Of a stretch of DNA of 64,000 bases, positions 6,028 to 63,950 are shown in pieces (position 1 is the stretch's first letter; every line of letters starts with the position of its first letter). Where the stretch lies: NCBI RefSeq assembly GCF_902652685.1, contig NZ_CACRUY010000003.1, positions 124,001 through 188,000 on the forward strand, read 5' to 3'. A model generated the notes under the pieces. The model searched no databases, was not told the DNA's origin, and saw only the letters and a list, made by a program, of their open reading frames with translations. A program made the position numbers and the translations under genes. This stretch comes from Mycobacterium sp. Marseille-P9652. Lineage in GTDB: Bacteria; Actinomycetota; Actinomycetes; Mycobacteriales; Mycobacteriaceae.

Positions 6028-6029
6028 CT

Positions 6030-7874: not shown

Positions 7875-7878
<4 letters not shown>

Positions 7879-10390: not shown

Positions 10391-10418
10391 CGGTGACGTT
10401 CCTTCGCAGTCGGGCGGC

Positions 10419-46146: not shown

Positions 46147-46160
46147 GGTTCCGTCCCGCG

Positions 46161-46583: not shown

Positions 46584-46639
46584 AGCCAGGCCAACGCCCC
46601 CGCCACCCCCGGTCATTCCCCCGGCCCTCGCGGTGTAAC

Positions 46640-46673
46640 TAGACAGTTCAGACTGTACAGTCTAGGCTGTCTA
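46640..46673. promoter_or_regulatory. 34-bp nested MarR operator
   Basis: An inner perfect palindrome AGACTGTACAGTCT (46650-46663) is centred exactly inside an outer pair TAGACAG/CTGTCTA (46640-46646 and 46667-46673), with 28 of 34 bases symmetric. A TAGGCT -10 at 46663-46668 lies inside and the ATG of the MarR gene follows at 46675, so bound regulator would cover the promoter. The divergent Ddn-like gene begins 57 bases away. Confidence 0.75.
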
Positions 46674-46674
46674 T

Positions 46675-47109
46675 ATGGTCACCGTCAGCGAGTCGTCGAT
46701 CCGGGCGGCCAGGGATCTGCGCGTCGTGTTCAGCAGGCTGCGCAGGCGCCTGCGGGAGGCCGCCACGGCGGACGACCTCACACCGCCGCAGACGGCGGCG
46801 TTGCTGCGGCTCGCCAAGGACGGGCCGGCCTCCACCAGCCAGCTGGCCGGCGCCGAACGCGTTCGGCCGCAGTCCATGGCCGCCACGGTGGCCGGGCTCG
46901 ACCGGCACGGCCTGATCGAACGCGCGCCCGATCCGCACGACGGCCGCCGCCAGCTCATCGCCCTGACCGCCGCCGGCCGCCGCCGCGCCGAGAGTGACCG
47001 GAAGGTGCGCGACGAGTGGCTGGCGCGCGCGATGGAGGACCGCTACACCGAGCGCGAGCGCCAGGTGATCAACGACGCCCTGGCGTTGCTCGCCCGGCTG
47101 GACGATTGA
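46675..47109 (+). CDS. MarR-family transcriptional regulator
   Basis: This 144-residue winged-helix repressor has the DNA-binding region LTPPQTAALLRLAKDGPASTSQLAGAERVRPQSM, the wing DPHDGRRQLIALTAAG, and flanking dimerisation helices. MarR proteins commonly sense redox or phenolic compounds; no sensing cysteine is seen. The ATG is at the end of the operator, so the mRNA is probably leaderless. It is followed by an F420-type oxidoreductase after 19 bases and faces a Ddn-like reductase; both are likely targets. Confidence 0.94.
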   Translation: MVTVSESSIRAARDLRVVFSRLRRRLREAATADDLTPPQTAALLRLAKDGPASTSQLAGAERVRPQSMAATVAGLDRHGLIERAPDPHDGRRQLIALTAAGRRRAESDRKVRDEWLARAMEDRYTERERQVINDALALLARLDD

Positions 47110-47128
47110 CGAAAGGAGCCACGACACA

Positions 47129-47989
47129 ATGAAATTCGGCGTCCACTACATCGATTTCCTGCCCGGGCCGCCCGAACGGCTTGGCCCGACGATGGCCGCC
47201 ACGGCCAGAGCCGCCGAGGATGCCGGAGTGGAGATGTTCACCCTGGCGGACCACTTCTTCCAGATGGAAGGCCTCGGTTCGGCCGAAGACCCGTTCCTCG
47301 AGGGGTATACGTCCATGGGTTACCTCGCCGGCCTGACCGAGCGCCTCACGCTCACCATGCTGGTCACCGGGGTCACGTACCGCTACCCCGGCGTGCTCGC
47401 CAAGACCGTGACCACCCTGGACGTCCTTGCCGGCGGCCGAGCCATGCTGGGCCTCGGCGCCGCCTGGTACGACCGCGAGCATCACGCGCTCGGCATCCCC
47501 TACCCGCCGCTCGGCGAGCGCTTCGAGATGCTCGAGGAAACGCTGCAGATCTGCCGGCAGATGTGGAGCGACGACGACGGTCCGTTCGAAGGCCGGCACT
47601 ACCGGCTCGCCGAGACGATCTGCCGGCCGCAGCCGGTGCGCCGACCACCCATCCTCATCGGCGGCGCCGGGGAGAAGAAGACGCTGCGCCTGGTGGCGCA
47701 GTACGCCGACGTGTGGAACAGCACTTCCGCGCTCGAGGAGTTGCCGCACAAGCTGGACGTCCTGCGCCGCCACTGCGACGCCGTGGGACGCGATTTTGGT
47801 GAGATCCGGCTCACCGCGGGCCTTTTCGCAGATCCCTTCGCCGACGTCGACGAATACCTGCGCCAGTTGGACCGCTACTCCGCGCTGGGAATCGACCTGG
47901 TCAACACCGGGCCGCTTCCCGGCACGACCGATCCGGCGGGTTGGGTCCGGCGGCTGGGCGACGAGGTGCTCCCGCGGGTGGCGGCATAG
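47129..47989 (+). CDS. LLM-class F420-type oxidoreductase
   Basis: This 286-residue luciferase-fold enzyme has FTLADHFFQM near residue 40, RLTLTMLVTGVTYRYPGVLAKTVTTLDVLAGGR and the GLGAAWYDREH motif, then RPPILIGGAGEKKTLRLVAQYAD. These suggest F420 as cofactor. It is in the MarR operon (19 bases after the regulator, with AAAGGAG upstream of ATG 47129), so it probably works on the compound sensed by that repressor. Substrate unknown. Confidence 0.92.
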   Translation: MKFGVHYIDFLPGPPERLGPTMAATARAAEDAGVEMFTLADHFFQMEGLGSAEDPFLEGYTSMGYLAGLTERLTLTMLVTGVTYRYPGVLAKTVTTLDVLAGGRAMLGLGAAWYDREHHALGIPYPPLGERFEMLEETLQICRQMWSDDDGPFEGRHYRLAETICRPQPVRRPPILIGGAGEKKTLRLVAQYADVWNSTSALEELPHKLDVLRRHCDAVGRDFGEIRLTAGLFADPFADVDEYLRQLDRYSALGIDLVNTGPLPGTTDPAGWVRRLGDEVLPRVAA

Positions 47990-48004
47990 GTCCGGATCGC
48001 GGGG

Positions 48005-48334
48005 TCAGCTCTTGGCCGGTGGGCTCGCGTTGTGGTGGTTCGGGCAGTAGTCGGCGGTCGCCGCCCCGACGAACAGCTTGGCCTGGTCCGGATTCAGCCG
48101 GTGCGCGCCGGTGAGCACGTCCACCTCGTCCTTCTGGGTGAAGCCGGAGTCGAGGTCCTTGCACATCATGCGGGCCATGTCCACGGTCTGGGCCGCCGAG
48201 CCGAGATGGACGCCGTGGTTGTTGAGGTAGCTGTTGAAGTCGGCGTCGGTGGTGTCGGCCGCCGCCGACGCGGCCGGCAGCAGCGCGATCGCCAGCAACC
48301 CACCCGAGACGCACGCGCAGATCTTGTTCATCAT
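48005..48334 (-). CDS. DUF732 secreted protein
   Basis: This 109-residue exported protein has an N-terminal signal peptide (hydrophobic stretch VSGGLLAIALLPAASAAA, cleavage probably after ASA). The mature domain contains the mycobacterial DUF732 pattern DADFNSYLNNHGV, a conserved cysteine in MARMMCKDL and a second in ADYCPNH that probably form a disulfide. The function is unknown. Of three close ATG codons (48340, 48334, 48331), 48334 has GGAAGG at the best distance. Confidence 0.88.
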   Translation of the reverse strand: MMNKICACVSGGLLAIALLPAASAAADTTDADFNSYLNNHGVHLGSAAQTVDMARMMCKDLDSGFTQKDEVDVLTGAHRLNPDQAKLFVGAATADYCPNHHNASPPAKS

Positions 48335-48480
48335 GTCCATCACCTTCCGAACGGTCGACAGCCGGACCATCCTCATAGGAAACTGTTTCCGGTAAGCATG
48401 GACCCTTGGCGTTGCGGGAGGTTGAACGGTGCGGAAACGGCGACTGACGTCACCCGCGCGCGACGGGGTCGGCGATGCGC

Positions 48481-49404
48481 TCAGCCGAGCTCGGCGCTCA
48501 CGTAGCTGATCGCGCCGCGGAACGTGGCGAGTATCTCGTTGTCGGGCACGGCGAACCCGTACCGGGCGTAGACATCCTCGGTGGCGTGCCGGGTCACCCG
48601 CCAACCGGTCGAGGTCAGGTGGTCGGCGGCCTGGCGCCGTTCGCCGGCCCACACCAACTCGGCGACGTCGATGTCGAGGCCGTGCTTGCGCCAGCCGCTC
48701 CGCAACGCGCGGGCGCGCTCGTCGGTGAACACGGACATGTCGGCGATGTTCTCGGTCGCCAGCCGGCTCCCGGGCGCGCTCAGCGAGGTGATGTTGTCCA
48801 GCAGCCGATCCTGGGCCTCCGGCGGCAGGTAGGGCAACAGCCCCTCGGCGATCCAGGCGGTGGGCGCCGCGCTGTCGAAGTAGTTGTCGCGCAACGCGCC
48901 CGGCCAATCGTCGCGCAGGTCGACGCCCACGGCGCGCCGCTCGGCGGTCGGTTCGGCGCCGAGCTGGGCCAGCGTCACGCCCTTGAAGGCGATCACCTCG
49001 GGCTGATCCACCTCGAACACCACGGTGCCCGACGGCCAGGGCAACCGGTACGCCCGCGCGTCCAGCCCGGCGGCCAGGATGACGGCCTGGCGGATGCCGC
49101 CGGCCGTGGAATCGAGGAGAAAGTCGTCGAAAAACCTTGTGCGAACGGTGATCTGCTCACGGCGCTGCTGGAACGTCAGGGGCACGTCGTCGTCGTCGAG
49201 CGGTATCTCGCCGTCGAGCATGCGGACGAAGAACGGGTGACCGACCGCGCGGACCAGCGGCTCGGCGAAACGGTCGTCGAGCAGCGGGTCCGGCCCGCGC
49301 GACGCCAGCGCCCGCGCCGACGCGACCATCGTCGCGGTCGCCCCCACGCTGGAGGCCAGATCCCAGCTGTCGCCGTCCGAGCGCGCCGAACCACCCGATG
49401 ACAA
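48481..49404 (-). CDS. SAM-dependent methyltransferase, LCM/TIGR00027-type mycobacterial family
   Basis: This 307-residue protein belongs to the large mycobacterial family of putative S-adenosylmethionine methyltransferases (leucine carboxyl methyltransferase fold). It has [19 protein letters not shown] at the start, the R-T-R-FFDDFL segment, the SAM-binding [27 protein letters not shown] and [19 protein letters not shown]. Substrates are unknown for nearly all members. It appears to use TTG at 49404. Single gene divergent from the large sensor fusion. Confidence 0.92.
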
Positions 49405-49719
49405 GGCTCACCCCTCTCGTCACTGTCCAGTGGATGTGCAGATCCTAACGGGCGCCCGCGCGAGACGGGCCGACGTGGTCACACCGTCTCTCGGGCCGAC
49501 GCGGCCGAACAGACGGCGGCTGAAGGAGTCGAGATTCGTTTGCTGAGGGCACCCTTGGTCTGGCCGTGGCCGTGCCATACCGGTCGCCGGTCGCCCTCCG
49601 GTAGGCTCCGAAGATCAGTCTGCAGGATCGCGCTCCCATCAGCGCCGAAGAGCAAACCGCCTGGGCGAGCCAGCCGCCCCGCGGCGCCTCGGCTTTGCTC
49701 CGCCAGAGAGGAACGGCGG
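49405..49719. other. Divergent intergenic region, 315 bases, no gene seen
   Basis: This lies between the methyltransferase (minus) and the sensor fusion (plus). The fusion frame is open from 49540, but that stretch has shadow-like composition. GAGAGG precedes GTG 49720. A TAGGCT hexamer near 49602 could be a -10. No dyad stands out. Confidence 0.4.
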
Positions 49720-52700
49720 GTGGGTGCTGATGACAGCACCGCGCAATCGCCGGCCGCCAAGGAGGCCGCCGTGTTCGCCGCCGACGACGAACTGCGGCCC
49801 GATCTCGCCAAGGTCGATTGGTCGGCGACCCCGCTAGGATCGCCGCTCGGCTGGCCACAAAGCCTGCAGACCGCGGTCAACACTGTGCTGTCCTCGCGCT
49901 TCTCCATGTGGATGGCGTGGGGTCCGGAACTCACCTTCTTCTGCAACGCGGCCTACCGCCACGCCACCCTCGGCCGCAAATACCCCTGGGCCCTGGGCCG
50001 TCCCGCGCGGGAGGTTTGGGCGGAGATCTGGACCGACATCGGCCCGCGCATCGAGCAGGTGCTCTCGACCGGGCAGGCGACGTGGGACACGGCGCTGCAG
50101 CTGTTCCTCGAGCGGTCGGGATACGCCGAAGAGTCGTATCACACGTTCTCCTACAGTCCCCTGCGCGACGAGGACGGCCACGTGGCCGGCATGCTCTGCG
50201 TCGTCAGGGAGGACACCGAGCAGGTGATCGCGGAGCGGCGGATGGCCACGCTGCGCGACCTCGGCTCCGACCCGAGCGTGGTGCGCACCGAAGACCAGAT
50301 GCTGGCGTTCGCCGGCCGCCAACTCAGCCGGAATCAGCAGGATCTGCCGTTCACTCTCATCGGCCTCTTCGACGACACCGGCGGGGCCCGGCTCGCGGGG
50401 TTCAGCGGGATCGAGGCCGACCATCCGGCCGCCCGGGCCCTGCTGACGGCGGCCCGCTCCCTGGTGTGGACCGCCGAAGAGTCACCCCGCAACGAGTCGA
50501 TGGTGATCGCACTCGACGACGACCTCCCGGCCGGCCTGCCGACCGGAGCCTGGCCGGATCCGCCGCTGCAGGCGCTGGTGGTTCCGCTGTCTCAGCAGGG
50601 CGCCGCCCCCTACGGCGTCCTGGTCGCCGCGCTGAACCGCTACCGTCCGCTCGACGAGGGCTATCGCGCGTTCCTCCAACTGGTCGGGGCGCACCTTGCG
50701 GCGGGAATCGGCAGCGCCCGCAGCTACCAGGCCCAGCAGCGACGCGCCGAGGAGCTGGCGGAGCTTGACCGGGCTAAGACCACGTTCTTCTCCAACATCA
50801 GCCACGAGCTGCGCACCCCGCTGACCCTGATCCTGGGACCGCTGGCCGAATTGCGTTCGCACACGGCGCAACTCGATGAGCAGACGCGTGGAGAACTCGA
50901 GATCATCCACCGCAACGGGCTGCGCCTGATGAAGCTCGTCAACACGCTGCTGGACTTTTCGCGCATCCAGGCCGGCCGCATGCAAGCCCATTACGAGCCG
51001 ATCGATTTGGCCGGCGTCACCGCGGACCTGGCCAGCATCTTCCGGTCGGCCGTCGACCGGGCGGGGCTCGAGTTGCGGGTCGACTGCCCACCGCTGGACG
51101 AGCCGGTGTACCTCGACCGCGACATGTGGGAGAAGGTGGTGCTCAACCTGCTGTCCAACGCGCTGAAGTTCACCTTCCAGGGCTCGATCACCGTCGCCGT
51201 CCGCCGCGAGGGCCCCGACGCGGTCGTCACGGTCAGCGACACCGGGATCGGCGTTCCCGCAACGGAACTCCCGAGGCTCTTCGACCGGTTCCACCGCATC
51301 GAGACCCCCTACGCCCGCTCCTCGGAAGGCAGCGGGATCGGCCTTGCCCTCGTCAAAGAGCTGGTCGGGTTGCACGAGGGCAGCATCGCCGTCGACAGCA
51401 CCGAGGGCCTGGGCACCACCTTCACGGTCCGGCTGCCGCTGGGCGTCGCGCACCTGCCGGCCGACGCCGTCTCCGCCGCCGAAACGTCGCGCGGCGGCTC
51501 GGGCAGCGCCGAACCGTACGTGCAGGAGGCCCTGCGCTGGGTGGCCAGCGACGTCGACGCCACGTCGGCCGACGGCCCCGAAGTGGGGCTGGCACCGGTC
51601 AGCGCGGCCAGCCAGGTGTGGAGCTCGGGACCGCCGCCGCGGGTGCTGATCGCCGACGACAACATCGACATGCGCGAGTACCTGGGCCGTTTGTTGGGCG
51701 CGGCCGGCTACGAGGTCGACTCCGTCAGCGACGGCGTGCGCGCGCTCGAGTCGGTTCGAAACAGCGCCCCGGACCTCGTGGTCAGCGACGTGATGATGCC
51801 CCGGCTCGACGGCATGGCGCTGGTGAAGGCACTGCGCTCGGACGCGCGGACGGCCGCGGTGCCGGTGCTGCTGCTCTCGGCGCGGGCCGGGCAGGAGGCG
51901 TCCATCGAGGGCTTGCGCGCCGGCGCCGACGACTACCTGGTCAAGCCCTTCGTCGCCGCGGAGCTGCTGGCCCGCGTGCGCGCCAACATCGAACTCGCGC
52001 GGCTGCGCAACCACCAGGCGCGGTGGCGCAGCGCGTTGATCGAGTCGATCCAGGAGGCGTTCTTCGTGTGCGACGAGCGCGGCGCCGTCATCGAGATCAA
52101 CGCCGCCTTCGCCCACGTCCTCGGGTACGGGCAGGACGGCATCCCCTACCAGCCGATGCACCCGTGGTGGCCCGATCCGGAGACCGACCGCGATGCCCAC
52201 CTGCAGTGCGCCGGGTTGTTCGCGGCCTTGTCGGGGGAGGCCAGCGGCACCTACGTCGTGCCCGCCGTGCACCGCGACGGTCATCGGCTGTGGATCCGGA
52301 CCGCCGTCAACCACGCCCGGGACCCCGACACCGGCCGCCGGGTCGTCGTCGGCACGTTCCGCGACGTCACCACCGAGCACTACACGGTGCAACGACAGAG
52401 TGCCCTGGCCGAGCTCAACGAGCAACTCGCGCAGGCGGATTCGGTCGACGACGCCCTGTCGGCCGCCGTCCGCGGGCTGCGCAAGCTGTGGCGGGCCCGC
52501 CTGGTGCTTGCCGCCACGTTCCCCGCACCCGCCCCCGACTCGGCGTCGGGATCGGATGAACCGAGCCTGGTGTCGGACGGGGAGCCGTCGCGCTGGGCGG
52601 ACCTGCCGGCAGCCACCCGGGACGCGATCACCTCGCTGCGTGACGGGCACATGCTGATCACCGACGCGACCACTCGGGAGACGGCCGGCATCGCGCTGCA

Positions 52701-53928
52701 ACATCCCCGCGGCGTCCTGGTGATCTGGGTCGAACTCGCCCGGTACCGGCCGTTCACCGGCGACGACCAAACGCTGCTGACGGTGCTGGCCGGCCGCCTG
52801 GGCCAGGGCCTGCAACGGGTGCATCAGATCGACCAGCAGCGCGAAACCGCGCTGGCCTTGCAGCACGCGATGCTCGGCCCCGCCGTGCTGCCTTCGGGAT
52901 TCGCGGTGCGCTACCAGCCCGCGACCCGGCCCCTGCAGATCGGCGGCGACTGGTATGACGTCGTCGACCTCGGCGACGGGCGGCTGGCGTTGATCGTCGG
53001 GGATTGCGTGGGCCACGGCCTGACGGCGGCGACGGTGATGGGTCAGCTCCGCAGCGCCTGCCGCGCCCTCCTGCTCGAGAACCCCAGTCCCAGCGCCACT
53101 CTCGAGGCGCTCGACCGCTTCGCGGCGCAGCTGCCCGGCGCCGCATGCACCACGGCGTTCTGCGCCGTGCTCACCAGCGAGACCGGCGAGTTGATCTACG
53201 CCAGCGCGGGCCATCCACCGCCGGTGGTGGTCGACGCCGATCGCACGATCCGGTTGCTCGACGAGGGCCGCAGCATCCCCCTCGGGCTGCGGCTTCGGCA
53301 GGACTGGCCGCGCCCACAGGCCCGGATCACCCTTCCGGCGCGCGCCACCCTGCTGCTCTACACCGACGGCCTCGTCGAGCGCCGCCGCGTCCCGCTGGAC
53401 GACGGCATCGCCCAGGCGGCGGAGATCGTCCGGGACGGCGGCGCGTCCTCGCTGGAAGAGCTTGCGGGCGAACTCATGTCGAGCCTCGCGCCCGACGGCG
53501 GATATCAGGACGACGTCGCCATGCTGCTCTACCGCCAACCGCCCCCGCTGGAAGCGGATTTCGAGGCCGACGTCAACCACCTGGCCAGCACCCGCGCCGC
53601 CCTGCGGACCTGGCTGAAACGCGCCGGGGTGGACGCGGATCAGACGCTGAGTGTGCTCATGGCCGCGGGCGAGGCTGTCGCGAACGCGATCGAGCACGGG
53701 CACCGCAACGGCCCCGGCACGGTTACCCTGTACGCGACGGCGCTTGCCGACCAGGTCCGGGTGACGGTCTCCGACACCGGCAGCTGGAAGACACCGCAAC
53801 AGGCCGCCGATTCTCACCGCGGCCGGGGCATCACCCTCATGCGGGGGCTGATGAACGACGTCAGCATCAAGCCGGGCACGGCCGGCACCGGCGGCACAGT
53901 GGTCGAGTTGCGGGCGAGGCTCACCTGA
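49720..53928 (+). CDS. Sensor fusion: PAS-GAF-histidine kinase-receiver-PAS-GAF-PP2C phosphatase-RsbW kinase
   Basis: This 1402-residue soluble protein combines, in order: PAS (about 20-160), GAF (165-335), HisKA with H362 in ISHELRTP, HATPase with NLLSNALKF, SDTGIGVP and GSGIGLAL (to about 560), a receiver with D690 in SDVMMP and its lysine in YLVKPF, PAS (770-885), GAF (905-1035), a SpoIIE/PP2C phosphatase with GGDWYD, GDCVGHG and TDGLVE metal sites (1045-1270), and an RsbW-like HATPase with EAVANAIEHGH and SDTGSW (1280-1402). It would both dephosphorylate and phosphorylate a STAS partner, with phosphorelay input. The STAS gene overlaps its stop (TGATG). GTG 49720 with GAGAGG is the likely start. 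Confidence 0.92.
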   Translation: MGADDSTAQSPAAKEAAVFAADDELRPDLAKVDWSATPLGSPLGWPQSLQTAVNTVLSSRFSMWMAWGPELTFFCNAAYRHATLGRKYPWALGRPAREVWAEIWTDIGPRIEQVLSTGQATWDTALQLFLERSGYAEESYHTFSYSPLRDEDGHVAGMLCVVREDTEQVIAERRMATLRDLGSDPSVVRTEDQMLAFAGRQLSRNQQDLPFTLIGLFDDTGGARLAGFSGIEADHPAARALLTAARSLVWTAEESPRNESMVIALDDDLPAGLPTGAWPDPPLQALVVPLSQQGAAPYGVLVAALNRYRPLDEGYRAFLQLVGAHLAAGIGSARSYQAQQRRAEELAELDRAKTTFFSNISHELRTPLTLILGPLAELRSHTAQLDEQTRGELEIIHRNGLRLMKLVNTLLDFSRIQAGRMQAHYEPIDLAGVTADLASIFRSAVDRAGLELRVDCPPLDEPVYLDRDMWEKVVLNLLSNALKFTFQGSITVAVRREGPDAVVTVSDTGIGVPATELPRLFDRFHRIETPYARSSEGSGIGLALVKELVGLHEGSIAVDSTEGLGTTFTVRLPLGVAHLPADAVSAAETSRGGSGSAEPYVQEALRWVASDVDATSADGPEVGLAPVSAASQVWSSGPPPRVLIADDNIDMREYLGRLLGAAGYEVDSVSDGVRALESVRNSAPDLVVSDVMMPRLDGMALVKALRSDARTAAVPVLLLSARAGQEASIEGLRAGADDYLVKPFVAAELLARVRANIELARLRNHQARWRSALIESIQEAFFVCDERGAVIEINAAFAHVLGYGQDGIPYQPMHPWWPDPETDRDAHLQCAGLFAALSGEASGTYVVPAVHRDGHRLWIRTAVNHARDPDTGRRVVVGTFRDVTTEHYTVQRQSALAELNEQLAQADSVDDALSAAVRGLRKLWRARLVLAATFPAPAPDSASGSDEPSLVSDGEPSRWADLPAATRDAITSLRDGHMLITDATTRETAGIALQHPRGVLVIWVELARYRPFTGDDQTLLTVLAGRLGQGLQRVHQIDQQRETALALQHAMLGPAVLPSGFAVRYQPATRPLQIGGDWYDVVDLGDGRLALIVGDCVGHGLTAATVMGQLRSACRALLLENPSPSATLEALDRFAAQLPGAACTTAFCAVLTSETGELIYASAGHPPPVVVDADRTIRLLDEGRSIPLGLRLRQDWPRPQARITLPARATLLLYTDGLVERRRVPLDDGIAQAAEIVRDGGASSLEELAGELMSSLAPDGGYQDDVAMLLYRQPPPLEADFEADVNHLASTRAALRTWLKRAGVDADQTLSVLMAAGEAVANAIEHGHRNGPGTVTLYATALADQVRVTVSDTGSWKTPQQAADSHRGRGITLMRGLMNDVSIKPGTAGTGGTVVELRARLT

Positions 53929-54227: not shown

Positions 54228-54420
54228 CATCCGGCGGAATAAGCGGGGCGGGGTGCTCGTTGGTTCCGGTCGGCGGTGTCGTGCGTTCCCCCGGGTACCA
54301 CACCAGAACCGTCGCTTCGAGCGACCACTTGCCGAGAGGCGTGAACACGGCACCGCCCCCTCTCTTGTTCCGGCGACTTGTTTCCCGGCTTGTTTCGATG
54401 GGCGCGATTCGGTCGAACCT

Positions 54421-54460
54421 CACCGGAGACATCGACCAACGTTCGAGGAGATCTCCGGTG
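54421..54460 (+). promoter_or_regulatory. Hairpin enclosing the start of the 55-residue protein
   Basis: CACCGGAGA (54421-54429) pairs perfectly with TCTCCGGTG (54452-54460). The GTG start lies in the stem and the GAGGAG ribosome site in the 22-base loop. This could limit translation, if transcription starts upstream of it. Confidence 0.35.
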
Positions 54461-54625
54461 GATCAGCAGAACAACATCGACCCCGCGCCGACGCCCGAGG
54501 ACGCCAGGAAGGCGACCGAGGAGCAGCGCGAATTGCAGGAGCAGCTGGAGCAGCGGGACAACGACCCGGACGCGCCGGGTCGCCATCAGTCCCACCACGA
54601 CCTGGCCGACGAGAGCACCCGCTGA
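54458..54625 (+). CDS. Small acidic protein, unknown function
   Basis: This 55-residue highly charged protein has a helical, Glu/Gln/Arg-rich middle (KATEEQRELQEQLEQRDN) and an Asp/His-rich end. It has no signal peptide or membrane segment. GAGGAG sits at ideal distance from the GTG at 54458. The longer frame back to 54260 is not family-like. I do not recognise it; the composition is that of small mycobacterial stress-associated proteins. It is on the same strand as the STAS gene but 230 bases later. Confidence 0.65.
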   Translation: MDQQNNIDPAPTPEDARKATEEQRELQEQLEQRDNDPDAPGRHQSHHDLADESTR

Positions 54626-55863
54626 CGGCTACCTCGCCTGCTCGCCGTCGAGCCGGTCCATGAGCCACGGCAGTGTCGCCGTGAATGCCGTTGCCGCTGA
54701 GGGTATTCGACGATGTCGCAGTCGATTCCCCTGGCGGCGCCCAGCGCACACAGGGATTCGGCGGCGGCCTGACCCACGCCCGCCTTCTTGCCCGCCCTCG
54801 ACACCGCGAAGAGGCCGGACAGGTCGGCGTACGGTCCGTGCCGGGCGATCGCGGTGCCGGGATCGAACCTCGACCACTGTTCCGCGTCGCCCCCGAAGAG
54901 CCGATCGATGGTCTGCTCGCGGGTGCCGGCATTCGGACCGAGGTCGCCGCCGATGTCGACGAACGCGCTGAACAGCTCGGGGTGCATGACCGCGAAGTCG
55001 ACCGCGCAGGTGCCCCCGGAAGAGAATCCCACCACGCCCCATTTCCCCTGTCCCCCAACGTCGAAGGCGCGCTGCACCGCGGGCACCACGTCGTCGGTCA
55101 CATGGTCGGCGGCGTTTCCCCGCGACCCGTTGACACATTCGGTGTCGACGGCGAAACCGCCGCTCGGGTCGGCGAAGACGACGGCGGGGGCCCGCCCGGC
55201 GTGTGCCGAGGCGAACGCGTCCAGGGTGTAAACCGCGTCACCGGCGCGAATCCAGTCGGCCGGGGTGTTGAATTCGCCGCCGATCATCGCGATCGCGGGG
55301 AGCCGCGGTGGCGCCGCGGCGAACCAGGCCGGCGGAAGGTACACCCACTCGGTGCGGTGGCGAAAACCCGATCCGCCCGTCCCGGTGTCGACGGCCAGCA
55401 CCGCGCCGCGTTGCGGCGCAACCCCTTTGGCCTTGAAGGCCCGGACCGTTTGCAGGTCGGTCTGATCCGGCAGCCGGCCGCCGGTGAGCTGGCCCCACGC
55501 CGACGAGACCGTCGGGAAGTAGCCCAACCACCCGTTGATCGTAAGCCCGGTGCACAGCAGGCAGAACGACCACGCGAACGCGGCCGCGTTCCGGCGCCAC
55601 CAGCCCGCGCCGCGCCAACCGAATACCGCCGCGGCGGTCGCTACCCCCACCAGGCACACCCACCCCCACATCCGCCACGGCGGAGGCTCGCTCGCCAGTC
55701 CGAGGTTGCTGTAGCACTCATGGGCCACGCTGCCGGTTGCCGCCCCCACCGCCGCGGCCAGGGGCACCCAGAGGGTCCGCCAGCGCCGGCCCCGCCGGAC
55801 GATGACATAGGCCAGCGCCGCGCCGGTGATCACCTGCAGGGCCACGGGGATCGGACCGTGCAT
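54586..55863 (-). CDS. Membrane-anchored alpha/beta esterase, apparently frameshifted near its C-terminus
   Basis: The open frame is 425 residues. Four hydrophobic helices (about 1-115) are followed by an esterase-D/antigen-85-like alpha/beta hydrolase domain with the nucleophile S281 in GFSSGG. After IVEYP (residue 388, about 54700) the frame turns into Arg/Ser-rich sequence and runs on into the convergent small gene. The expected end, AATAFTATLPWLMDRLDGEQ, is present in another frame and stops at 54629, four bases after that gene. A short deletion also seems to have removed the region that normally carries the catalytic histidine. It may be a pseudogene or contain an assembly error. ATG at 55863. 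Confidence 0.7.
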   Translation of the reverse strand: MHGPIPVALQVITGAALAYVIVRRGRRWRTLWVPLAAAVGAATGSVAHECYSNLGLASEPPPWRMWGWVCLVGVATAAAVFGWRGAGWWRRNAAAFAWSFCLLCTGLTINGWLGYFPTVSSAWGQLTGGRLPDQTDLQTVRAFKAKGVAPQRGAVLAVDTGTGGSGFRHRTEWVYLPPAWFAAAPPRLPAIAMIGGEFNTPADWIRAGDAVYTLDAFASAHAGRAPAVVFADPSGGFAVDTECVNGSRGNAADHVTDDVVPAVQRAFDVGGQGKWGVVGFSSGGTCAVDFAVMHPELFSAFVDIGGDLGPNAGTREQTIDRLFGGDAEQWSRFDPGTAIARHGPYADLSGLFAVSRAGKKAGVGQAAAESLCALGAARGIDCDIVEYPQRQRHSRRHCRGSWTGSTASRRGSRQRVLSSARSWWD

Positions 55864-56118
55864 GAGCGACGCGCGCCCGAGATCTGGGATAAGCAGTTGC
55901 CGACCGCCCGGTCGTCGGGGTGTCGGGAGTCATTGCGACCCGCGGCACCGTTGTCATGGGTGGCAGGCTGATACCCCGGCGCCGGTGCCGGAAAACGCTG
56001 GCCGACGACCGCATTCGCTGGTCGCGCGCCGGTTGCCGCGGGGCCGGGTGAATTGACCATGGCAGGATGTTTCGGTGTTGTCGTTGCGTGGCGCCGCGCA
56101 GTAGCTGAGGTGGTGGGG

Positions 56119-58008
56119 GTGGGCGAGGATCCGGCGGTGGGTCGGCCGGCCGATTCGCGGGTGGGCTCGCTGTTCGGCCCCTATCGGCTCACGCGGCTGC
56201 TGGGGGCCGGGGGTTTCGGCGAGGTGTACGAGGCCGAGGACACCGCGATGCACCGCGTAGTGGCGCTGAAGGTGTTGAGCGGCACCTTCTCCCAGGACCC
56301 GGTGTTCCGTGAGCGCTTGTTCCGCGAGGCGCGCACGGCCGGGCGGCTGCGCGAACCGCACGTGCTGCCCATCCACGGGTGCGGGGAGATCGATGGCCAG
56401 GTCTACATCGACATGCGGCTGGTCCGCGGCGTCGACCTGGCGACTCTGCTGCAACGCGAGGGCCCCCTGGAGCCGGGCCGGGCGGTGTCCATCGTGCGGC
56501 AGGTCGCCGACGCGCTGGACGCCGCCCATGCCGAGACCGTGATCCATCGCGACGTGAAACCCGCCAACATCCTGCTGGCCGGTGACGGCTTCGCCAGCCT
56601 CGTCGACTTCGGGTTGGCGAACGCCGCGGGGGACGCCAGGCTCACCAAGCCCGGCACCGCCGTCGGCACCTTCGACTACGTCGCGCCCGAACGGCTCACC
56701 GGCGAGCCCGTCGACCACCGCTGTGACGTCTACGCGCTCGCCTGCGTCCTCTACGAACTCCTGACCGGTCGCGCCCCGTATTCGGCGCACCGCGAACTGC
56801 CCGAGCTGATGGCCGCGCACATGACCGCCCCGATCCCCGTGCCCAGCCGCCAGCGACCGGGAATCCCCGCGGGATTCGACGCCGTCGTCGCCCGCGGCAT
56901 GGCCAAGAACCCCGGCGACCGCTACCAGAGCGCAGGCCAACTCGCCGCCGCCGCGGAGGCGGTGGTGGCGCCCGCGCGCCGCGGTCCCGCGGTGTCGACG
57001 ACGCAACCCTGGGAATCGACGCCGGCGCCGCCCCCCGCCCAGCATCCGTCCCCGGCCGTCGGCCCGCCGCCGCCGCGCCGCGGGTCGCGCCGTCGCCTGC
57101 TCACGATCGTGGCCGCGCTCGCCGTCGTCGTCGCGACCGCCGCCACCGTGGCGGCCATCGCGATCACCCATCGGCGCGGTCCGGCCCAGCAGGCCGCCTC
57201 TCGGCCGCGGCCCTCGTCGACGGCTCCCGTCACCCTGCCGTTCCCCAAGCTTGCCCTTCCCCGCGGCGTCGCGTTGGACGGCCGGGGCACCATCTACGTC
57301 GCCGAACTGACACCCCACTCCCCGAACGGACGCATCCTCGAACTGGCCGAAGGCCGCGACGCTCCCGTGGAGTTGCCCTTCGGGGACCTGTTCGCCGAAG
57401 GTGTCGCTGTCGACGCCCACGACAACGTGTACGCCACCGACACGCACGCGTCCGCGGTTTGGCAGTTGACGCCCGGGGCCCGGGGCCCGCATCTCATGCC
57501 GTTCGGGCCCCTCGGGAACCCGGTGGGCGTGGCCGCCGGCAAGGACGGGAGCGTCTACGTCGCCGACCAGGCCCTGAAGGAGGTGCTCAAGCTGTCGGCC
57601 GGTGACACGCAGCCCACGCGGCTGATGCCCACCACCCCCCTTGACTCACCGGTGGGCATCGCGGTCGATGGCGACAGCAACGTCTACGTCGTCGACAGCG
57701 GCGGCCGGCATGTGCTGAAGCTCGGCGCCGGCGCCTCCATCCCCACCGAACTGCCCTTCGGGGGCCTCGACGCGCCCTACGGCGTGGCCGCCGCCAAGGA
57801 TGGGACGGTATACGTCTCCGATCCGTTCAAGCATCGGGTGTGGAAGTTGCCCTCCGGCGCGGCGGCGTCCGCCGAGCTGCACTTCCCGGGGCTGAACTAC
57901 CCGCGCGGGTTGGCCACCGATGAGGCCGGCGAGATCTATGTGGTCGACTGCAACAACGCCGACAGCTGCACGGACGGCAGGGTCCTGGAACTGGGTGCGG
58001 GAGCGTGA
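56119..58008 (+). CDS. PknD-like receptor Ser/Thr kinase 1 with NHL propeller
   Basis: This protein of about 629 residues has an intracellular kinase domain, a membrane helix (about 328-349) and an extracellular NHL-type beta-propeller. The kinase is complete: GAGGFG loop (29-34), K51 in ALKVL, HRDVKPAN with D145, DFG with D163 and APE (189-191). The propeller (about 374-629) has repeats of the form GVAVD, NVYV.D, and V.KL.G. M. tuberculosis PknD has the same plan. GTG 56119 is chosen among several close GTG codons. First of three tandem PknD-like genes, all the same direction with 30 bases to the next. Confidence 0.93.
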   Translation: MGEDPAVGRPADSRVGSLFGPYRLTRLLGAGGFGEVYEAEDTAMHRVVALKVLSGTFSQDPVFRERLFREARTAGRLREPHVLPIHGCGEIDGQVYIDMRLVRGVDLATLLQREGPLEPGRAVSIVRQVADALDAAHAETVIHRDVKPANILLAGDGFASLVDFGLANAAGDARLTKPGTAVGTFDYVAPERLTGEPVDHRCDVYALACVLYELLTGRAPYSAHRELPELMAAHMTAPIPVPSRQRPGIPAGFDAVVARGMAKNPGDRYQSAGQLAAAAEAVVAPARRGPAVSTTQPWESTPAPPPAQHPSPAVGPPPPRRGSRRRLLTIVAALAVVVATAATVAAIAITHRRGPAQQAASRPRPSSTAPVTLPFPKLALPRGVALDGRGTIYVAELTPHSPNGRILELAEGRDAPVELPFGDLFAEGVAVDAHDNVYATDTHASAVWQLTPGARGPHLMPFGPLGNPVGVAAGKDGSVYVADQALKEVLKLSAGDTQPTRLMPTTPLDSPVGIAVDGDSNVYVVDSGGRHVLKLGAGASIPTELPFGGLDAPYGVAAAKDGTVYVSDPFKHRVWKLPSGAAASAELHFPGLNYPRGLATDEAGEIYVVDCNNADSCTDGRVLELGAGA

Positions 58009-58038
58009 TCACCGATATGTCGACGGCGGGGGGCCGGC

Positions 58039-59928
58039 GTGGTCGATGAACCGACCGATACCCATCCTTCCGGCCCGCGCGCCGGCTCCCGGTTCGGCCC
58101 GTACCTGCTGAGGCGCCTCTTGGGCCGGGGCGGGTTCGGCGAGGTCTACGAGGCCGAGGACACCGCGATGCATCGCGTGGTGGCCCTGAAGCTGTTGTCC
58201 AGCAGCTACTCTCACAACCCGGCGTTCCGGGAGCGGCTGTTTCGCGAGGCCCGCACAGCGGGACGGCTGCACGATCCGCACGTCGTGCCCGTCCACAGCT
58301 GCGGCGAGATCGACGGCCAGCTCTACATCGACATGCGGCTCATCGACGGCACCGACCTGCAGGGCGTGCTCGACCGCGAGGGGGCGCTGGACCCGGGGCG
58401 GGCGGTGGCCATCACCCGCCAGATCGCCTCCGCGCTGGACGCCGCGCACGCCGAGCGGGTGATCCACCGCGACGTCAAGCCCGCCAACATCCTGCTGGGC
58501 CGCAACGACTTCGCCTCGCTGGTCGACTTCGGCCTGGCGAACGCGGCCACCGACACCAAGCTCACGAGCGAGGGCACCACCATCGGCTCGTTCGCTTACC
58601 TCGCGCCGGAGCGACTCACCAACGGCCAGGTCACCCCCGCCGCCGACATCTACGCCCTGGCCTGTGTGCTCTACGAATGTCTGACCGGATCGCACCCGTT
58701 CCCGGGCCGCGACGAAATCCCGTCGCTGGTGGCCGCCCACCTGACCGCGCCGATCCCCCTGCCCAGCCGGCAGCGGCCGGGGCTTCCCGTGGGCTTCGAC
58801 GAGGTGATCGCGCGCGGCATGGCCAAGAACCCCGGCGAGCGCTATCGCAGCGCCGGCGAGCTCGCCGCCGCGGCCCAACGCGCACTGCACACCGGCGCAC
58901 CCGAACAGGGATGGGCGAGCGCGCCGACCACGCAGCCGTGGCAGCAGGATCGTGACCGCACGGTTCCGAGGGCGGCCCCGCCGGCATTCCACCCGCCGGC
59001 GAAACCTCGAAAAGCCCGGCGCCGCATCGTCATTGCCGTCGTCATCGCGGCGGTCATCGCCGCCTCCATCGCCGCGGTCGCCCTGGTCCGCGTCGGCAAT
59101 CGGTCCACTTCCCCCGGCGGCGCGCCCGGCGCCACCACGACGTCGCGTTCGGCCGCCGCGACGAGCACCGCCCCGCCGCTCAACGCGACGCCGTTGCCGG
59201 TCGTGGGGACCGGCGATCTCCTGGGCGTGGCCGTGGACGACCGGGGTGACATCTACGTGGTCGACGAAATCGCGAAGCGCGTGCTCGAACTTCCCGTCGG
59301 CGCCACCGCGGCCCGGGAGTTGCCCTTTCCTCCCCTGGAGGACCCGAAACGCGTCGCGGCAGACGGGGCCGGAAACGTCTATGTCGTCGACTGGACCAAG
59401 AGCAACGGCGCCGGGCGCGTGTGGAAGCTGCCGCCCGGCGCAACGGGCGCAACGGAATTGCCCTTCGGCCGGATCCGCCCCGAGGATGTCGCAACCGACG
59501 CGGCCGGGAACGTGTACACCGCAAGCGTCGACCGGGTGCTCGAACTGCCCGTGGGCGCCACCAATCCGACGGTGCTCCCCCTCGGCAGCGGGTACTTCAC
59601 CAGCGTCGCGGTCGACAAGACGGGCAACGTCTACGCCGCCGACCGCGGCCGGGTGTTCAGGCTTAGGCCCGGCGCCCCGACCGCGGATCAGCTGCCGTTC
59701 GCCGCGCTCGGCTCGGCCCATGGGCTGGCGGTCGACGCGCGCGGCGACGTCTATGTGCTCGACAACGCGAACCTCATGGGGCGGGTGATCAGGCTTCCCG
59801 CCGGGGCGAACACATCAATACAGTTGTTCGCCACCGAAAGTCAGGAATTCGGCGGAATCGCGCTCGACGAGGCCGGCAACCTCTACCTGACCGAGAACAA
59901 GCGCCTGCTCAAGCTTGCGGTCGCGTGA
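58039..59928 (+). CDS. PknD-like receptor Ser/Thr kinase 2 with NHL propeller
   Basis: This 629-residue protein is a close paralogue of the preceding one. It has GRGGFG (29-34), K51, HRDVKPAN with D145, DFG with D163, APE, a Pro/Ala-rich juxtamembrane linker, a membrane helix (about 330-351), and six or so propeller repeats (GVAVDDRGDIYVVD and variants). The kinase domain is very close to kinase 1 while the propellers differ more, which suggests the same output and different ligands. GTG start at 58039, 30 bases after kinase 1. It ends 49 bases before the third gene. Confidence 0.94.
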   Translation: MVDEPTDTHPSGPRAGSRFGPYLLRRLLGRGGFGEVYEAEDTAMHRVVALKLLSSSYSHNPAFRERLFREARTAGRLHDPHVVPVHSCGEIDGQLYIDMRLIDGTDLQGVLDREGALDPGRAVAITRQIASALDAAHAERVIHRDVKPANILLGRNDFASLVDFGLANAATDTKLTSEGTTIGSFAYLAPERLTNGQVTPAADIYALACVLYECLTGSHPFPGRDEIPSLVAAHLTAPIPLPSRQRPGLPVGFDEVIARGMAKNPGERYRSAGELAAAAQRALHTGAPEQGWASAPTTQPWQQDRDRTVPRAAPPAFHPPAKPRKARRRIVIAVVIAAVIAASIAAVALVRVGNRSTSPGGAPGATTTSRSAAATSTAPPLNATPLPVVGTGDLLGVAVDDRGDIYVVDEIAKRVLELPVGATAARELPFPPLEDPKRVAADGAGNVYVVDWTKSNGAGRVWKLPPGATGATELPFGRIRPEDVATDAAGNVYTASVDRVLELPVGATNPTVLPLGSGYFTSVAVDKTGNVYAADRGRVFRLRPGAPTADQLPFAALGSAHGLAVDARGDVYVLDNANLMGRVIRLPAGANTSIQLFATESQEFGGIALDEAGNLYLTENKRLLKLAVA

Positions 59929-59977
59929 TGGGACGCGCCAGCCAAACCCACCCCCGGCCGCGGATCGGGGCCGGCAC

Positions 59978-61528
59978 GTGAGCACCGACCTGCGGACGGT
60001 GCTGGCGCGCGGGCCGATGGAGCCCGCGCGGGCCGTCGACCTGGTGTGCCAGATCGCCGCGGCAATCGACCACCTCCACGCCACCGAGTCGCTCCATCGC
60101 GAGGTCACGACGGCCACCATCCTGCTGTCCGACGACGGGCGCGCCTACCTGGCGGATCCCCGGGCGTTCCCGTCGCCACAGCAGCGGTCCCCCGAAGGGA
60201 TGCGCAACAGCGAGGCAAGCTACCGCGCCGACATCTACGCCCTGGCCGGCGTTCTCTACGAGTGCCTCACCGGCTTCCCCCCGATGCCGATCGTCGTGCC
60301 TCCCAGTCAGCGCCGGCCCGGCATCCCGCCCGAGTTCGACCGCGTGATCGCCCGTGGCATGGCCCCCAATCCCGGCGAGCGTTATGGCAGCGCCGCGGAG
60401 CTGGCCGACGCCGCCCGGCACGCCCTGGCCACCGCGCACCATGACGGACCGAGCAATCGGCTCACGAGACCCTCTGCGCCCGGCGGGTATCCGTCCCACG
60501 GCCACGCCGAATGGCAACCCCTGCCCTCTCCCGTCGCGCGGCCGAGGCGACGGCGACGCGTGCTCATCGCCGTGCTCGCGGTCGTCGCCGTGGCCCTGAT
60601 CGGGACCGCGGCCGCCGTCGCCGTTCCCCGCCTCACCCGTCATTCGGACACCACGCCGAGCCAGCACACCTACACCGCCGCGCCCACGCCCCTGCCGTTC
60701 CCCGACCTGAACCAGGCCCAGAGCATCGCAGTCGATGCCGCCGGAGGTGTCTACGTCCTCGGGTCGCTGACTCCGGGCGTCGCAGAGGGTGATCTGGGGA
60801 CACGCCGGCTCTTCACGCTGCCCCCGTCCGCCACCAGCCCGACCGCGAAAACCGTGCCGGGCATCGATTTCCGCCTGGCGTCCGACATGGCCACCGACGG
60901 CGCCGGCAACCTCTACCTGTGCGACGGAACGAGCGTTTGGGAGCTCGCGCCGGGCGCGCCCAGCCCGATCCGGCTGCCGTTCCGCGGATTCGTGAACATC
61001 CAGGCCATCGCCGTCGATGCGGCAGGTACCGCCTACGCGGCCGGCGACGAGGCCGGCGGCGGCCTGGACGTCAAGTACGGAGTGAAGAGGCTGGCCCCGG
61101 GAGACACCCGCTCAACAGACCTTCCCTTCGCCGACGTGGACCTGCCGCGCGCGGTGGCGGTCGACAAGGCCGGCACCGTCTACCTCGGTGACACCATCCG
61201 GGGCACCGGGAAGGGCCGGGTCCGCAAACTCGTGGCCAACGCCGACACCCCGACCGCCCTCTCCTTCCCGGGCCTGCTCGAAGCCAGTCGGTTTGCGATC
61301 GACTCCGCCGGAAACCTCTTCGTCGCCGACGCCTGGCAGAAGACGGCCGGGTTGTTCGAGCTGCCGGCCGGTGGGACGACCGCCACGAAAGTGCCTGTCT
61401 CCGAGCGCGCTTCCACCGTGGCCGTCGACTCGGCCGACAACCTCTACATCGCCGAGAACGCCACGCTCGACAGGAACAACCGGATCGTGAGGCCGGGGCA
61501 GGTGTTGAAGTTCGCCCCCGACCGATGA
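59978..61528 (+). CDS. PknD-like receptor pseudokinase lacking the N-lobe, with NHL propeller
   Basis: This 516-residue protein starts at the position equal to the kinase hinge (DLRTVLARGPMEPARAV). The glycine loop, the ATP-binding lysine and helix C are absent. The catalytic loop reads HREVTTAT (40-47) instead of HRDVKPAN, and DFG reads DPR (60-62), so it cannot be an active kinase. The C-lobe end (RADIYALAGVLYECLTG, GMAPNPGERYGSA), the membrane helix (about 188-210) and the propeller (to 516) are intact. GTG 59978 is the likely start, although the frame is open from 59915. It may bind a ligand and regulate the two neighbours. Confidence 0.9.
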   Translation: MSTDLRTVLARGPMEPARAVDLVCQIAAAIDHLHATESLHREVTTATILLSDDGRAYLADPRAFPSPQQRSPEGMRNSEASYRADIYALAGVLYECLTGFPPMPIVVPPSQRRPGIPPEFDRVIARGMAPNPGERYGSAAELADAARHALATAHHDGPSNRLTRPSAPGGYPSHGHAEWQPLPSPVARPRRRRRVLIAVLAVVAVALIGTAAAVAVPRLTRHSDTTPSQHTYTAAPTPLPFPDLNQAQSIAVDAAGGVYVLGSLTPGVAEGDLGTRRLFTLPPSATSPTAKTVPGIDFRLASDMATDGAGNLYLCDGTSVWELAPGAPSPIRLPFRGFVNIQAIAVDAAGTAYAAGDEAGGGLDVKYGVKRLAPGDTRSTDLPFADVDLPRAVAVDKAGTVYLGDTIRGTGKGRVRKLVANADTPTALSFPGLLEASRFAIDSAGNLFVADAWQKTAGLFELPAGGTTATKVPVSERASTVAVDSADNLYIAENATLDRNNRIVRPGQVLKFAPDR

Positions 61529-61614
61529 TTCACCGGAACAGTCGTTCGCCAACGATTCGACGTGTCGGGAAACGGGTACTTACCGCCTCATAGCAGAGTG
61601 AAGGGACGCAGCCG

Positions 61615-61785
61615 ATGGCGGTGGAACGCGGTCGTACCCGTTGCCCGAGGTGCATGGCCTGGGCCGACTATCGATTCCTGGACCGCGGGGCGAACACCCT
61701 CGAGTACGAGGTCCGATGCGCGGCCTGCGGTCACCTGCACTCCGAAGTCAACGTCCTCTCGACTCAGAGGACGGCAGCGGCCTGA
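61615..61785 (+). CDS. Small zinc-ribbon protein
   Basis: This 56-residue protein has two CxxC pairs, C10-P-R-C13 and C35-A-A-C38-G-H, which make a classical zinc ribbon. The spacing and the aromatic core (WADYRFLD, NTLEYEVRC) suggest a folded domain. AAGGGA lies upstream of the ATG at 61615. It follows the pseudokinase by 86 bases and ends ten bases before the convergent Nudix stop. The function is unknown; nucleic-acid or protein binding is likely. Confidence 0.8.
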   Translation: MAVERGRTRCPRCMAWADYRFLDRGANTLEYEVRCAACGHLHSEVNVLSTQRTAAA

Positions 61786-61795
61786 CCCGGTTGAC

Positions 61796-62515
61796 CTATC
61801 GCCAGGCGAACACCGGCTGCTCGAACTCTCCGACCGGGTCGTCGCGGCCCTCGAGGCACAGCCACCGCAGCTGCAACAGCACGGCGCCCGTCGGTGCGTG
61901 AATGAGGTCGTTCCCCAACGGAATCTGCACCACCGGCCGCTGGCTCTCCGGGATGCTGATGAAGCGCGGGGAGTCGTCGCGCTGCAATTCGTGCAGACCC
62001 ACCCGGTAGACCGCCACCACCTCCTGCGGCGCCGGCCGCGGGTCGAGCCGGCCGCCGCCCCAGATCACCACCGGCGTGATGACGTACCCGGACCGCGTCG
62101 CGTAGTCGTCGAGCAGGCCGAGCACCGACGAGTCGGGAAGCGCGACGCCGACCTCCTCACTCAACTCCCGCAGCGCCGCGTCGACGACGGTCTCACCGGG
62201 GTCGAGACGACCGCCCGGCAGCGCCCACTGCGCGGCATGCGACGTCAGACGTGCCGCCCTGCGGCACAGCAGGAACGCCGCACCGCCCGAGACGTTGACC
62301 ATGCGGCCGTCGAGGCCGGCCTCCGGCATCGGCCGGTCGGCGTTCCATTCGTCGACCGGCGCGGGGTCCACCCTGTCCTCCCCGACGCGCGAATCCACCA
62401 GCACCACCGCGACGGCCGCGTGCCGCTTGCTCGCGTCGGTCACCGTGCGGCGGTCGTGCGCCTTCAGGTGCGCCCGAACCCGCTCGCGGAGCGCCTCGTC
62501 GTACCGGATGGTCAC
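61796..62515 (-). CDS. Nudix hydrolase
   Basis: This 239-residue protein has a perfect Nudix box: GGRLDPGE, then REL and SEEVG at the standard spacing, which binds Mg and hydrolyses a nucleoside-diphosphate-linked compound. An N-terminal extension of about 60 residues (VTDASKRHAAVAVVLV begins the fold) and a C-terminal helix resemble CoA- or NAD-pyrophosphatase types, but the substrate is not certain. ATG at 62515. A DosR-like box sits 90 bases upstream, so induction under hypoxia is possible. Confidence 0.92.
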   Translation of the reverse strand: MTIRYDEALRERVRAHLKAHDRRTVTDASKRHAAVAVVLVDSRVGEDRVDPAPVDEWNADRPMPEAGLDGRMVNVSGGAAFLLCRRAARLTSHAAQWALPGGRLDPGETVVDAALRELSEEVGVALPDSSVLGLLDDYATRSGYVITPVVIWGGGRLDPRPAPQEVVAVYRVGLHELQRDDSPRFISIPESQRPVVQIPLGNDLIHAPTGAVLLQLRWLCLEGRDDPVGEFEQPVFAWR

Positions 62516-62597
62516 TGCTCGACTATAGGCAGGGGGCGGCGTAGCGCGTCCGGCGACGAGGAGCGGGAGATCTCGTGGACCCTAATGCTCAAATACC

Positions 62598-63043: not shown

Positions 63044-63102
63044 CCGTATACCTTAGCGCCCCACCTGCCGGTCCACCAAAGCTATATCAAGAAGCTTGAC
63101 TC

Positions 63103-63820
<718 letters not shown>

Positions 63821-63950
63821 GCCTCGTTGTTCCGAAGGATTGGTTGCCGCGCAACATTTTTCGGGGCATTCGCGAAGATTCGTTTGTAGCCTCAGTTTGG
63901 CCGCGGGCGGGTGCGGGGTTCGAAGTTTCACGAGGGGGTAAACCCTCCGC

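What the first reader, a model, noticed from the sequence alone, without database searches (positions are those of the whole stretch)
56119..61528. Three tandem PknD-like receptor genes, the last an N-lobe-less pseudokinase
Two complete receptor kinases with near-identical kinase domains are followed by a paralogue that lacks the whole N-lobe. In it HRD has become HRE, the catalytic-loop Lys and Asn are both Thr, and DFG is DPR, while the C-lobe remnant, membrane helix and NHL propeller are intact. Keeping the sensor while losing catalysis suggests a decoy receptor or an allosteric partner for the two active kinases. I know of no described mycobacterial system of two PknD-type kinases plus a receptor pseudokinase.
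Basis: partly seen in the sequence, partly recalled or inferred. Interest (0 to 1): 0.78.

Follow-up and report, generated by a model that had tools for sequence, protein, structure and literature searches.

The report
Conserved half-kinase receptor beside two kinases
In a small group of slow-growing mycobacteria, two membrane sensor kinases travel with a third sensor that has kept its outside propeller but lost half of its kinase, and its persistence suggests that it regulates the other two rather than being a dead gene.

Summary
Two intact receptor Ser/Thr kinases (g1, g2) are followed by g3, which has only a kinase C-lobe, a membrane helix and an NHL-type propeller; likely start GTG 59978. 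g3 is not a recent deletion: searches with g1, g2 and g3 each return the same 16 of 396 genomes of the genus. All 19 trio g3 that I aligned lack the N-lobe, the catalytic Lys and Asn and the DFG Phe. One genome holds two trios in tandem, one with a less degraded g3. Against: genome G195 has lost g1, g2 and most of g3 at the window's own site, leaving a broken g3 tail, so the cassette is dispensable. dN/dS of the g3 C-lobe is below 1 (0.156 over the tree, 0.296 in close pairs) but about 2.6-4.2 times that of the active C-lobes. AlphaFold predicts a folded C-lobe. My reading: a non-catalytic co-receptor that probably limits N-lobe-dependent activation of g1 and g2. No interaction or activity was tested.

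The parts
56053..58008 (+). g1: receptor Ser/Thr kinase (kinase, membrane helix, NHL propeller); possible later start GTG 56119
   Evidence: ORF; Pfam Pkinase 152.6 bits, 6 NHL stretches; HRDVKPAN and DFG intact
58039..59928 (+). g2: second receptor Ser/Thr kinase with NHL propeller
   Evidence: ORF; Pfam Pkinase 147.5 bits, NHL; catalytic motifs intact
59928..59981 (+). 17-codon open frame whose ATG overlaps the g2 stop and whose TGA overlaps the g3 GTG start; possible translational bridge
   Evidence: Translation, sequence. In 16 of 19 aligned g3 the start codon itself overlaps the g2 stop. Coupling is inferred.
59978..61528 (+). g3: N-lobe-less receptor pseudokinase, 516 aa
   Evidence: ORF; start by homology; profile match only to the C-lobe part of Pkinase
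59978..60442 (+). g3 kinase C-lobe remnant (about residues 1-155)
   Evidence: Ten-residue pLDDT means 82-98 for residues 1-150 except 47 and 63 at 61-80; Foldseek match to PknE 2h34 and PknB
60095..60118 (+). degenerate catalytic loop HREVTTAT
   Evidence: Sequence; Lys and Asn absent in 19 of 19 g3
60155..60163 (+). DPR in place of DFG
   Evidence: Phe absent in 19 of 19, Asp kept in 17 of 19
60560..60622 (+). g3 membrane helix (about residues 195-215)
   Evidence: Helix 195-215 in the model at low to middling confidence; hydrophobic stretch in the sequence
60683..61525 (+). g3 extracellular beta-propeller
   Evidence: SBBP/NHL in Pfam; Foldseek match to the PknD sensor domain 1rwi/1rwl

Best explanation
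g3 is a conserved, non-catalytic co-receptor of a three-gene signalling cassette. Shown: it lacks the whole ATP-binding N-lobe and the catalytic residues, keeps a C-lobe predicted to fold, a membrane helix and a propeller, and is found together with g1 and g2. Inferred: its propeller and membrane parts let it pair with g1 or g2. Activation of PknB and PknD by dimerisation runs through the N-lobes, so a pair containing g3 cannot form that activating dimer. g3 would then limit or tune the signal of the two active kinases according to what its propeller senses.
For: g1, g2 and g3 are found in the same 16 of 396 genomes, contiguous and in the same order as far as the contigs reach. One genome has the whole trio twice in tandem. 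The g3 start overlaps the g2 stop in 16 of 19. 19 of 19 trio g3 lack N-lobe, Lys, Asn and Phe. g3 is monophyletic with support 100 in the C-lobe, propeller and joint trees. dN/dS of the g3 C-lobe is 0.156; a model with omega 1 (and kappa 2) is worse by about 199 log units. The g3 propeller is nearly as constrained as those of g1 and g2 (0.155 against 0.139 and 0.113). Two AlphaFold models with different alignments agree on the C-lobe. Where the trio was lost (G195), all three genes were hit together. N-lobe-dependent activation of PknD and PknB: passages of PMC3601408. A bacterial histidine pseudokinase forms heterodimers with its paralogue: abstract of PMC9491836.
Against: No physical interaction, expression or activity was tested. 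The dN/dS of the C-lobe is about 2.6-4.2 times that of the active C-lobes, so the remnant matters less than the propeller, or its role is loose. The cassette is dispensable: G195 has lost g1 and g2 and keeps a g3 tail in two frames at the window's site. In three of 19 copies, the window's included, the g3 start does not overlap the g2 stop. In G045 g1 is split over two frames while g2 and g3 are open. The dampening direction is inference only.
Confidence: 0.45

Rival explanations
1. g3 is a positive scaffold or substrate. Its C-lobe docks g1 or g2, and the Thr-rich segment that replaces the activation loop is phosphorylated by them, as MviN is by PknB, and recruits an FHA-domain partner.
For: A segment of the type TPSTERTR..VTNTEATYRAD, with 4-8 Thr, replaces the activation loop in 15 of 19 g3. 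MviN is a precedent for a phosphorylated mycobacterial pseudokinase (passages).
Against: The segment is absent in the window's own g3 (0 Thr), in M. szulgai and M. angelicum (2-3 Thr), and different in G381 copy B.
Confidence: 0.2
2. g3 is mainly a sensor or ligand decoy. The propeller is the working part and the C-lobe remnant only helps folding or membrane insertion.
For: The g3 propeller is nearly as constrained as those of g1 and g2, while the C-lobe is relaxed.
Against: The C-lobe is present and open in 19 of 19 trio g3, has dN/dS below 1, and keeps the helix-F Asp in 18 of 19.
Confidence: 0.22
3. g3 is a decaying paralogue carried along by linkage.
For: Loss of catalytic elements; relaxed C-lobe (dN/dS 0.19-0.63 over eight close pairs); variable HRD region; a frame-broken g3 tail in G195.
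Against: 17 of 17 matches have no stop inside despite deep divergence; the omega-1 model is rejected for C-lobe, linker and propeller; the overlapping start is kept in 16 of 19. In G195 g1 and g2 went as well, so that relic does not show g3 decaying alone.
Confidence: 0.07

Closest known systems
PknD of M. tuberculosis (receptor Ser/Thr kinase with NHL propeller; structures 1rwi/1rwl of the sensor)
   Same: Propeller fold and kinase-membrane helix-propeller order; the order in the tuberculosis protein, there called Mbk, is from a passage of PMC1262709
   Different: g3 has no N-lobe and no catalytic residues. By sequence the g3 C-lobe is closest to PknE 2h34 among solved chains (also first mycobacterial kinase domain). 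Three paralogues in a row.
MviN (MurJ) pseudokinase domain of M. tuberculosis, family ActPs3
   Same: Mycobacterial membrane-bound pseudokinase; the family has a deletion in the activation loop (passages of PMC12599244)
   Different: MviN has an N-lobe with a dimer interface; no NHL propeller is mentioned there; g3 has no N-lobe
ActPs1 pseudokinases (actinobacteria)
   Same: Substituted catalytic motifs, about 60% lack helix G, often a PQQ domain C-terminal to the kinase (section 6 of PMC12599244)
   Different: ActPs1 is described by substitution, not loss, of all three catalytic residues, so I take it to have an N-lobe; g3 has none. Family assignment was not tested.
EssB/YukC of type VII secretion
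   Same: Membrane protein with a non-catalytic kinase-like cytosolic part (passages of PMC3694306)
   Different: EssB-N is bilobal and its outer part is helical, not a propeller
ChrS pseudokinase variant of Corynebacterium glutamicum
   Same: A sensor kinase that lost its catalytic part acts through a paralogous kinase; heterodimers shown (abstract of PMC9491836)
   Different: A histidine kinase, and a laboratory-evolved frameshift rather than a conserved gene
StpK7 of M. smegmatis (NF052427)
   Same: Best NCBIfam match of all three proteins
   Different: All three far below the family cut-off of 900 bits (g3 90.6, g1 360, g2 370)

Membership tests
PknD-type receptor Ser/Thr kinase (g1, g2) | Bilobal kinase domain with Lys, HRD and DFG | tested here: met
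PknD-type receptor Ser/Thr kinase (g1, g2) | C-terminal NHL beta-propeller after a membrane helix | tested here: met
   (NHL 81.1 and 51.9 bits); hydrophobic stretch by eye
PknD-type receptor Ser/Thr kinase (g3) | Complete bilobal kinase domain | tested here: not met
PknD-type receptor Ser/Thr kinase (g3) | PknD-like propeller sensor | tested here: met
   Foldseek 1rwi_A E 5.8e-19; phmmer 1rwi_B 1.2e-30
Pseudokinase (general) | Kinase fold lacking one or more of Lys, HRD, DFG | tested here: met
   Beta-3 Lys gone with the whole N-lobe; 19 of 19 lack the catalytic-loop Lys and Asn and the DFG Phe
Pseudokinase (general) | No phosphotransfer or ATP binding in assay | not testable with these tools
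   Needs biochemistry
ActPs1/2/3 bacterial pseudokinase families | Kinase domain with an N-lobe and family-specific substitutions | tested here: not met
   No N-lobe in 19 of 19 g3; the families' own profiles were not available, so the substitutions were not tested
Pseudogene | Frameshift, internal stop or neutral dN/dS | tested here: not met
   Trio g3: no stop inside in 17 of 17 matches, dN/dS below 1. Met only by the separate relic in G195.

The most novel reading that the evidence does not exclude
An inherited three-receptor module in which an N-lobe-less pseudo-receptor is a built-in limiter: it pairs with active kinases through propeller and membrane parts but cannot make the N-lobe dimer that switches them on. 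The degradation was stepwise (N-lobe first, activation loop and helix G later), with an intermediate preserved in one genome.
Probability: 0.3. Interest if true: 0.75.

Novelty: new variant of a known kind. Interest (0 to 1): 0.6.

Why it matters
Bacterial pseudokinases are barely studied. The 2025 review of their families (PMC12599244: outline, passages and two sections seen) has no occurrence of 'NHL', 'propeller' or 'truncat' in its text. A naturally N-lobe-less receptor next to its two active paralogues is a natural test of the model that mycobacterial receptor kinases are switched on by N-lobe dimers. It also shows that a receptor kinase can keep its sensor under near-normal constraint after catalysis is gone.

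Tried and rejected
Recent deletion: rejected. My first thought was that the 17-codon frame after the g2 stop was the leftover N-terminus of a freshly deleted kinase. Relatives show that g3 begins at helix D at the g2 stop.

G195, seen as a 65% match to residues 372-480, carries a g3 tail in two frames at the window's own site, with the stretch that holds the esterase-like ORF, g1, g2 and most of g3 missing. It lies below the cut-offs. I left the odds as they were, since g1 and g2 are gone there too.

Origin of g3 from g1 or g2: unsettled. The joint and propeller trees join g3 to g1 (support 100); the C-lobe tree puts g3 outside g1+g2. The first tree contained four mis-picked paralogue ORFs (L017, L019, L020, L026), dropped.

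Flanks: four window genes found no match in 17 trio loci; an all-against-all flank comparison showed that those loci share flanks with each other but not with the window.

The dN/dS trees use 11 genomes with all three genes complete, of 13 loci held then, one fixed tree, and a null model that also fixed kappa; the eight close pairs were chosen by me for low divergence (seven usable for g1).

The search for related loci with the window protein alone found no relative; the alignment worked. A StpK7-like role was dropped: scores are far below the cut-off.
Full report
What is there. The window carries three ORFs in a row on the + strand. g1 and g2 are receptor Ser/Thr kinases: Pfam kinase domain from the N-lobe on, NHL repeats, intact HRDVKPAN and DFG. 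g3 matches only positions 84-198 of 263 of the kinase profile (29.5 bits, cut-off 31.7) and has propeller repeats. The window's g3 has HREVTTAT for the catalytic loop and DPR for DFG. Between g1 and g2 of the window, identity is 79% in the N-lobe, 67% in the C-lobe and 39% in the propeller; g3 against g1 and g2 is 49-52% in the C-lobe and 30-36% in the propeller. 'Near-identical kinase domains' is therefore too strong.

g3 is an old, shared form. In one search all 198 genomes had some kinase match; by score and by what the loci hold I take nine of them, the window's included, to carry g3. In a search of 396 genomes with the g3 of G006, 16 pass E 1e-60, with 17 copies. A search with the g3 propeller alone at E 1e-25 gave the same 16 plus two weak matches, G270 and G291, at 41-45% identity, which I did not follow. 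In the relatives g3 begins at helix D, at the g2 stop. I aligned 19 trio g3: the 17 copies plus two named strains. None has an N-lobe; the catalytic-loop Lys and Asn and the DFG Phe are absent in 19 of 19. The HRD Asp is kept in 7 of 19, the DFG Asp in 17 and the helix-F Asp in 18. The alignment was made from open frames; one search lists no stop inside any of its 17 matches. The activation segment is 20-26 residues in 18 and 30 in one; I count 41 in the window's g2. The helix-G stretch is missing in 18 and present in that same one.

A result against. G195 (L042) holds a piece of g3 most like the window's: residues 352-458 and 459-515, at 66% and 60% identity, in two different frames, without g1 or g2. 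Its surroundings match the window at 46108-49396, 54257-54625, 61053-62541 and 63084-63821. So at the window's own site this genome has lost g1, g2 and most of g3. The cassette can be lost, and one frame-broken g3 tail exists; all three genes went together there.

Names. A scan of one genome per species found trio loci in M. gordonae (two records), a Mycobacterium MAG AWTP1-6, M. asiaticum (four records), Mycobacterium sp. 1423905.2, M. szulgai and M. angelicum. The scan did not list M. tuberculosis, but it depends on two short peptide patterns. No call names the window's species.

A unit of three. The g2 propeller and the g1 propeller, searched in 396 genomes each, return the same 16 as g3 (cut-offs E 1e-60 and 1e-50; the weakest hits are 3.7e-82 and 1.6e-84). 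The order is g1-g2-g3 in each; in two contigs g1 is cut by the contig end (G010, G236). G381 holds two trios in tandem. The g3 start overlaps the g2 stop in 16 of 19; it lies +49 nt in the window, +28 in G381 copy B and +4 in G236. In the window a 17-codon frame starts on the g2 stop and ends on the g3 start, which could keep the coupling; this is inference. In G045 g1 is split over two overlapping frames while g2 and g3 are open.

Stepwise loss. G381 copy-B g3 lacks the N-lobe, Lys and Asn like the rest but keeps an APE-like motif and helix G. It branches outside the other 18 g3 in the joint, C-lobe and propeller trees (support 99, 94, 99). This fits loss of the N-lobe first and of the other parts later. 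g3 is monophyletic with support 100 in all three trees; which paralogue it came from is unsettled.

Selection. Over 11 genomes dN/dS is 0.156 for the g3 C-lobe, 0.205 for its linker and membrane part and 0.104 for its propeller. The g1 and g2 C-lobes give 0.059 and 0.037, their N-lobes 0.045 and 0.014 and their propellers 0.097 and 0.070. Fixing omega at 1 (and kappa at 2) costs the g3 C-lobe about 199 log-likelihood units. In up to eight close pairs the pooled values are 0.296 (g3 C-lobe, range 0.19-0.63), 0.155 (g3 propeller), 0.072 and 0.074 (g1 and g2 C-lobes) and 0.139 and 0.113 (g1 and g2 propellers). The remnant is under purifying selection, clearly weaker than in the active paralogues; the propeller is nearly as constrained as theirs.

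Structure. AlphaFold with 32 rows gives mean pLDDT 84.8 and pTM 0.61; with 11 g3 rows only, 78.4 and 0.56, with nearly the same elements. The C-lobe is confident except residues 61-80; linker and membrane helix are not. Foldseek matches the propeller to the PknD sensor and the C-lobe to PknE and PknB; by sequence the closest solved kinase domain is PknE.

Place. In the other trio loci, where the contig reaches, the trio lies between a DNA polymerase III alpha gene (dnaE1 is my name for it), pointing away from it, and two genes of the short-chain dehydrogenase kind (best NCBIfam matches below their cut-offs). In the window's genome that site is on another contig, and between polymerase and dehydrogenase it holds other genes and no trio match. 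The trio was moved, or gained separately, in the lineage of the window and G195. It keeps its composition in two genomic places.

How it may work. PknD and PknB are activated allosterically by dimerisation through their N-lobes (passages of the review PMC3601408). A receptor without an N-lobe cannot take part in such a dimer. If its propeller, membrane helix or C-lobe pairs with g1 or g2, it would hold an active kinase in a non-activating pair. This limiting direction is inference; scaffold/substrate and sensor-decoy rivals are given with probabilities.

Literature. Searches for pseudokinase with mycobacteria and PknD, bacterial pseudokinase and N-lobe, PknD with NHL, N-lobe-less wording, M. 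gordonae with PknD (no paper) and pseudokinase with NHL repeat (12 of 383 listed) showed no title or abstract start describing this trio. Of PMC12599244 I saw the outline, passages and two sections; of PMC4238996, PMC3694306, PMC1262709, PMC3601408 and PMC13355554 passages; of PMC9491836 the abstract.

Verdict. A real, conserved and unusual variant of a known kind. The anatomy and conservation are well supported; the mechanism is a hypothesis.

Noticed in passing
L042:5039-5529 (G195), - strand; window 54625-61053: G195 matches the window on both sides of the cassette but lacks the stretch with g1, g2 and most of g3; a g3 tail remains in two frames.
   Followed up: partly
L093 (G381), trio ORFs 1394-6830 and 6703-12319 of the flipped locus: Two complete trios in tandem; the second g3 keeps an APE-like motif and helix G.
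   Followed up: partly
L038:2595-3854 and 3325-4488 (G045): g1 is split over two overlapping frames (kinase part and propeller part), whereas g2 and g3 are open; real break or assembly error not decided.
   Followed up: no
L106:6150-10900 (G000 contig C9): At the polymerase site, where the other trio genomes carry the cassette, the window's genome has other genes that look like an MmpL/MmpS-type pair and a TetR-type regulator (by eye, from the translation).
   Followed up: partly
window 49540-53928 +: A 1462-aa ORF that reads like a hybrid sensor kinase with receiver, PAS/GAF and RsbU-type phosphatase parts (by eye, no search run).
   Followed up: no
alignment A3, columns about 290-300: The three receptors show a similar Thr-containing motif in the cytosolic juxtamembrane region in many rows (TREW or TTQPW in g1, TQAW or TTRPW in g2, ATRTIQLP in g3 of relatives).
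   Followed up: no
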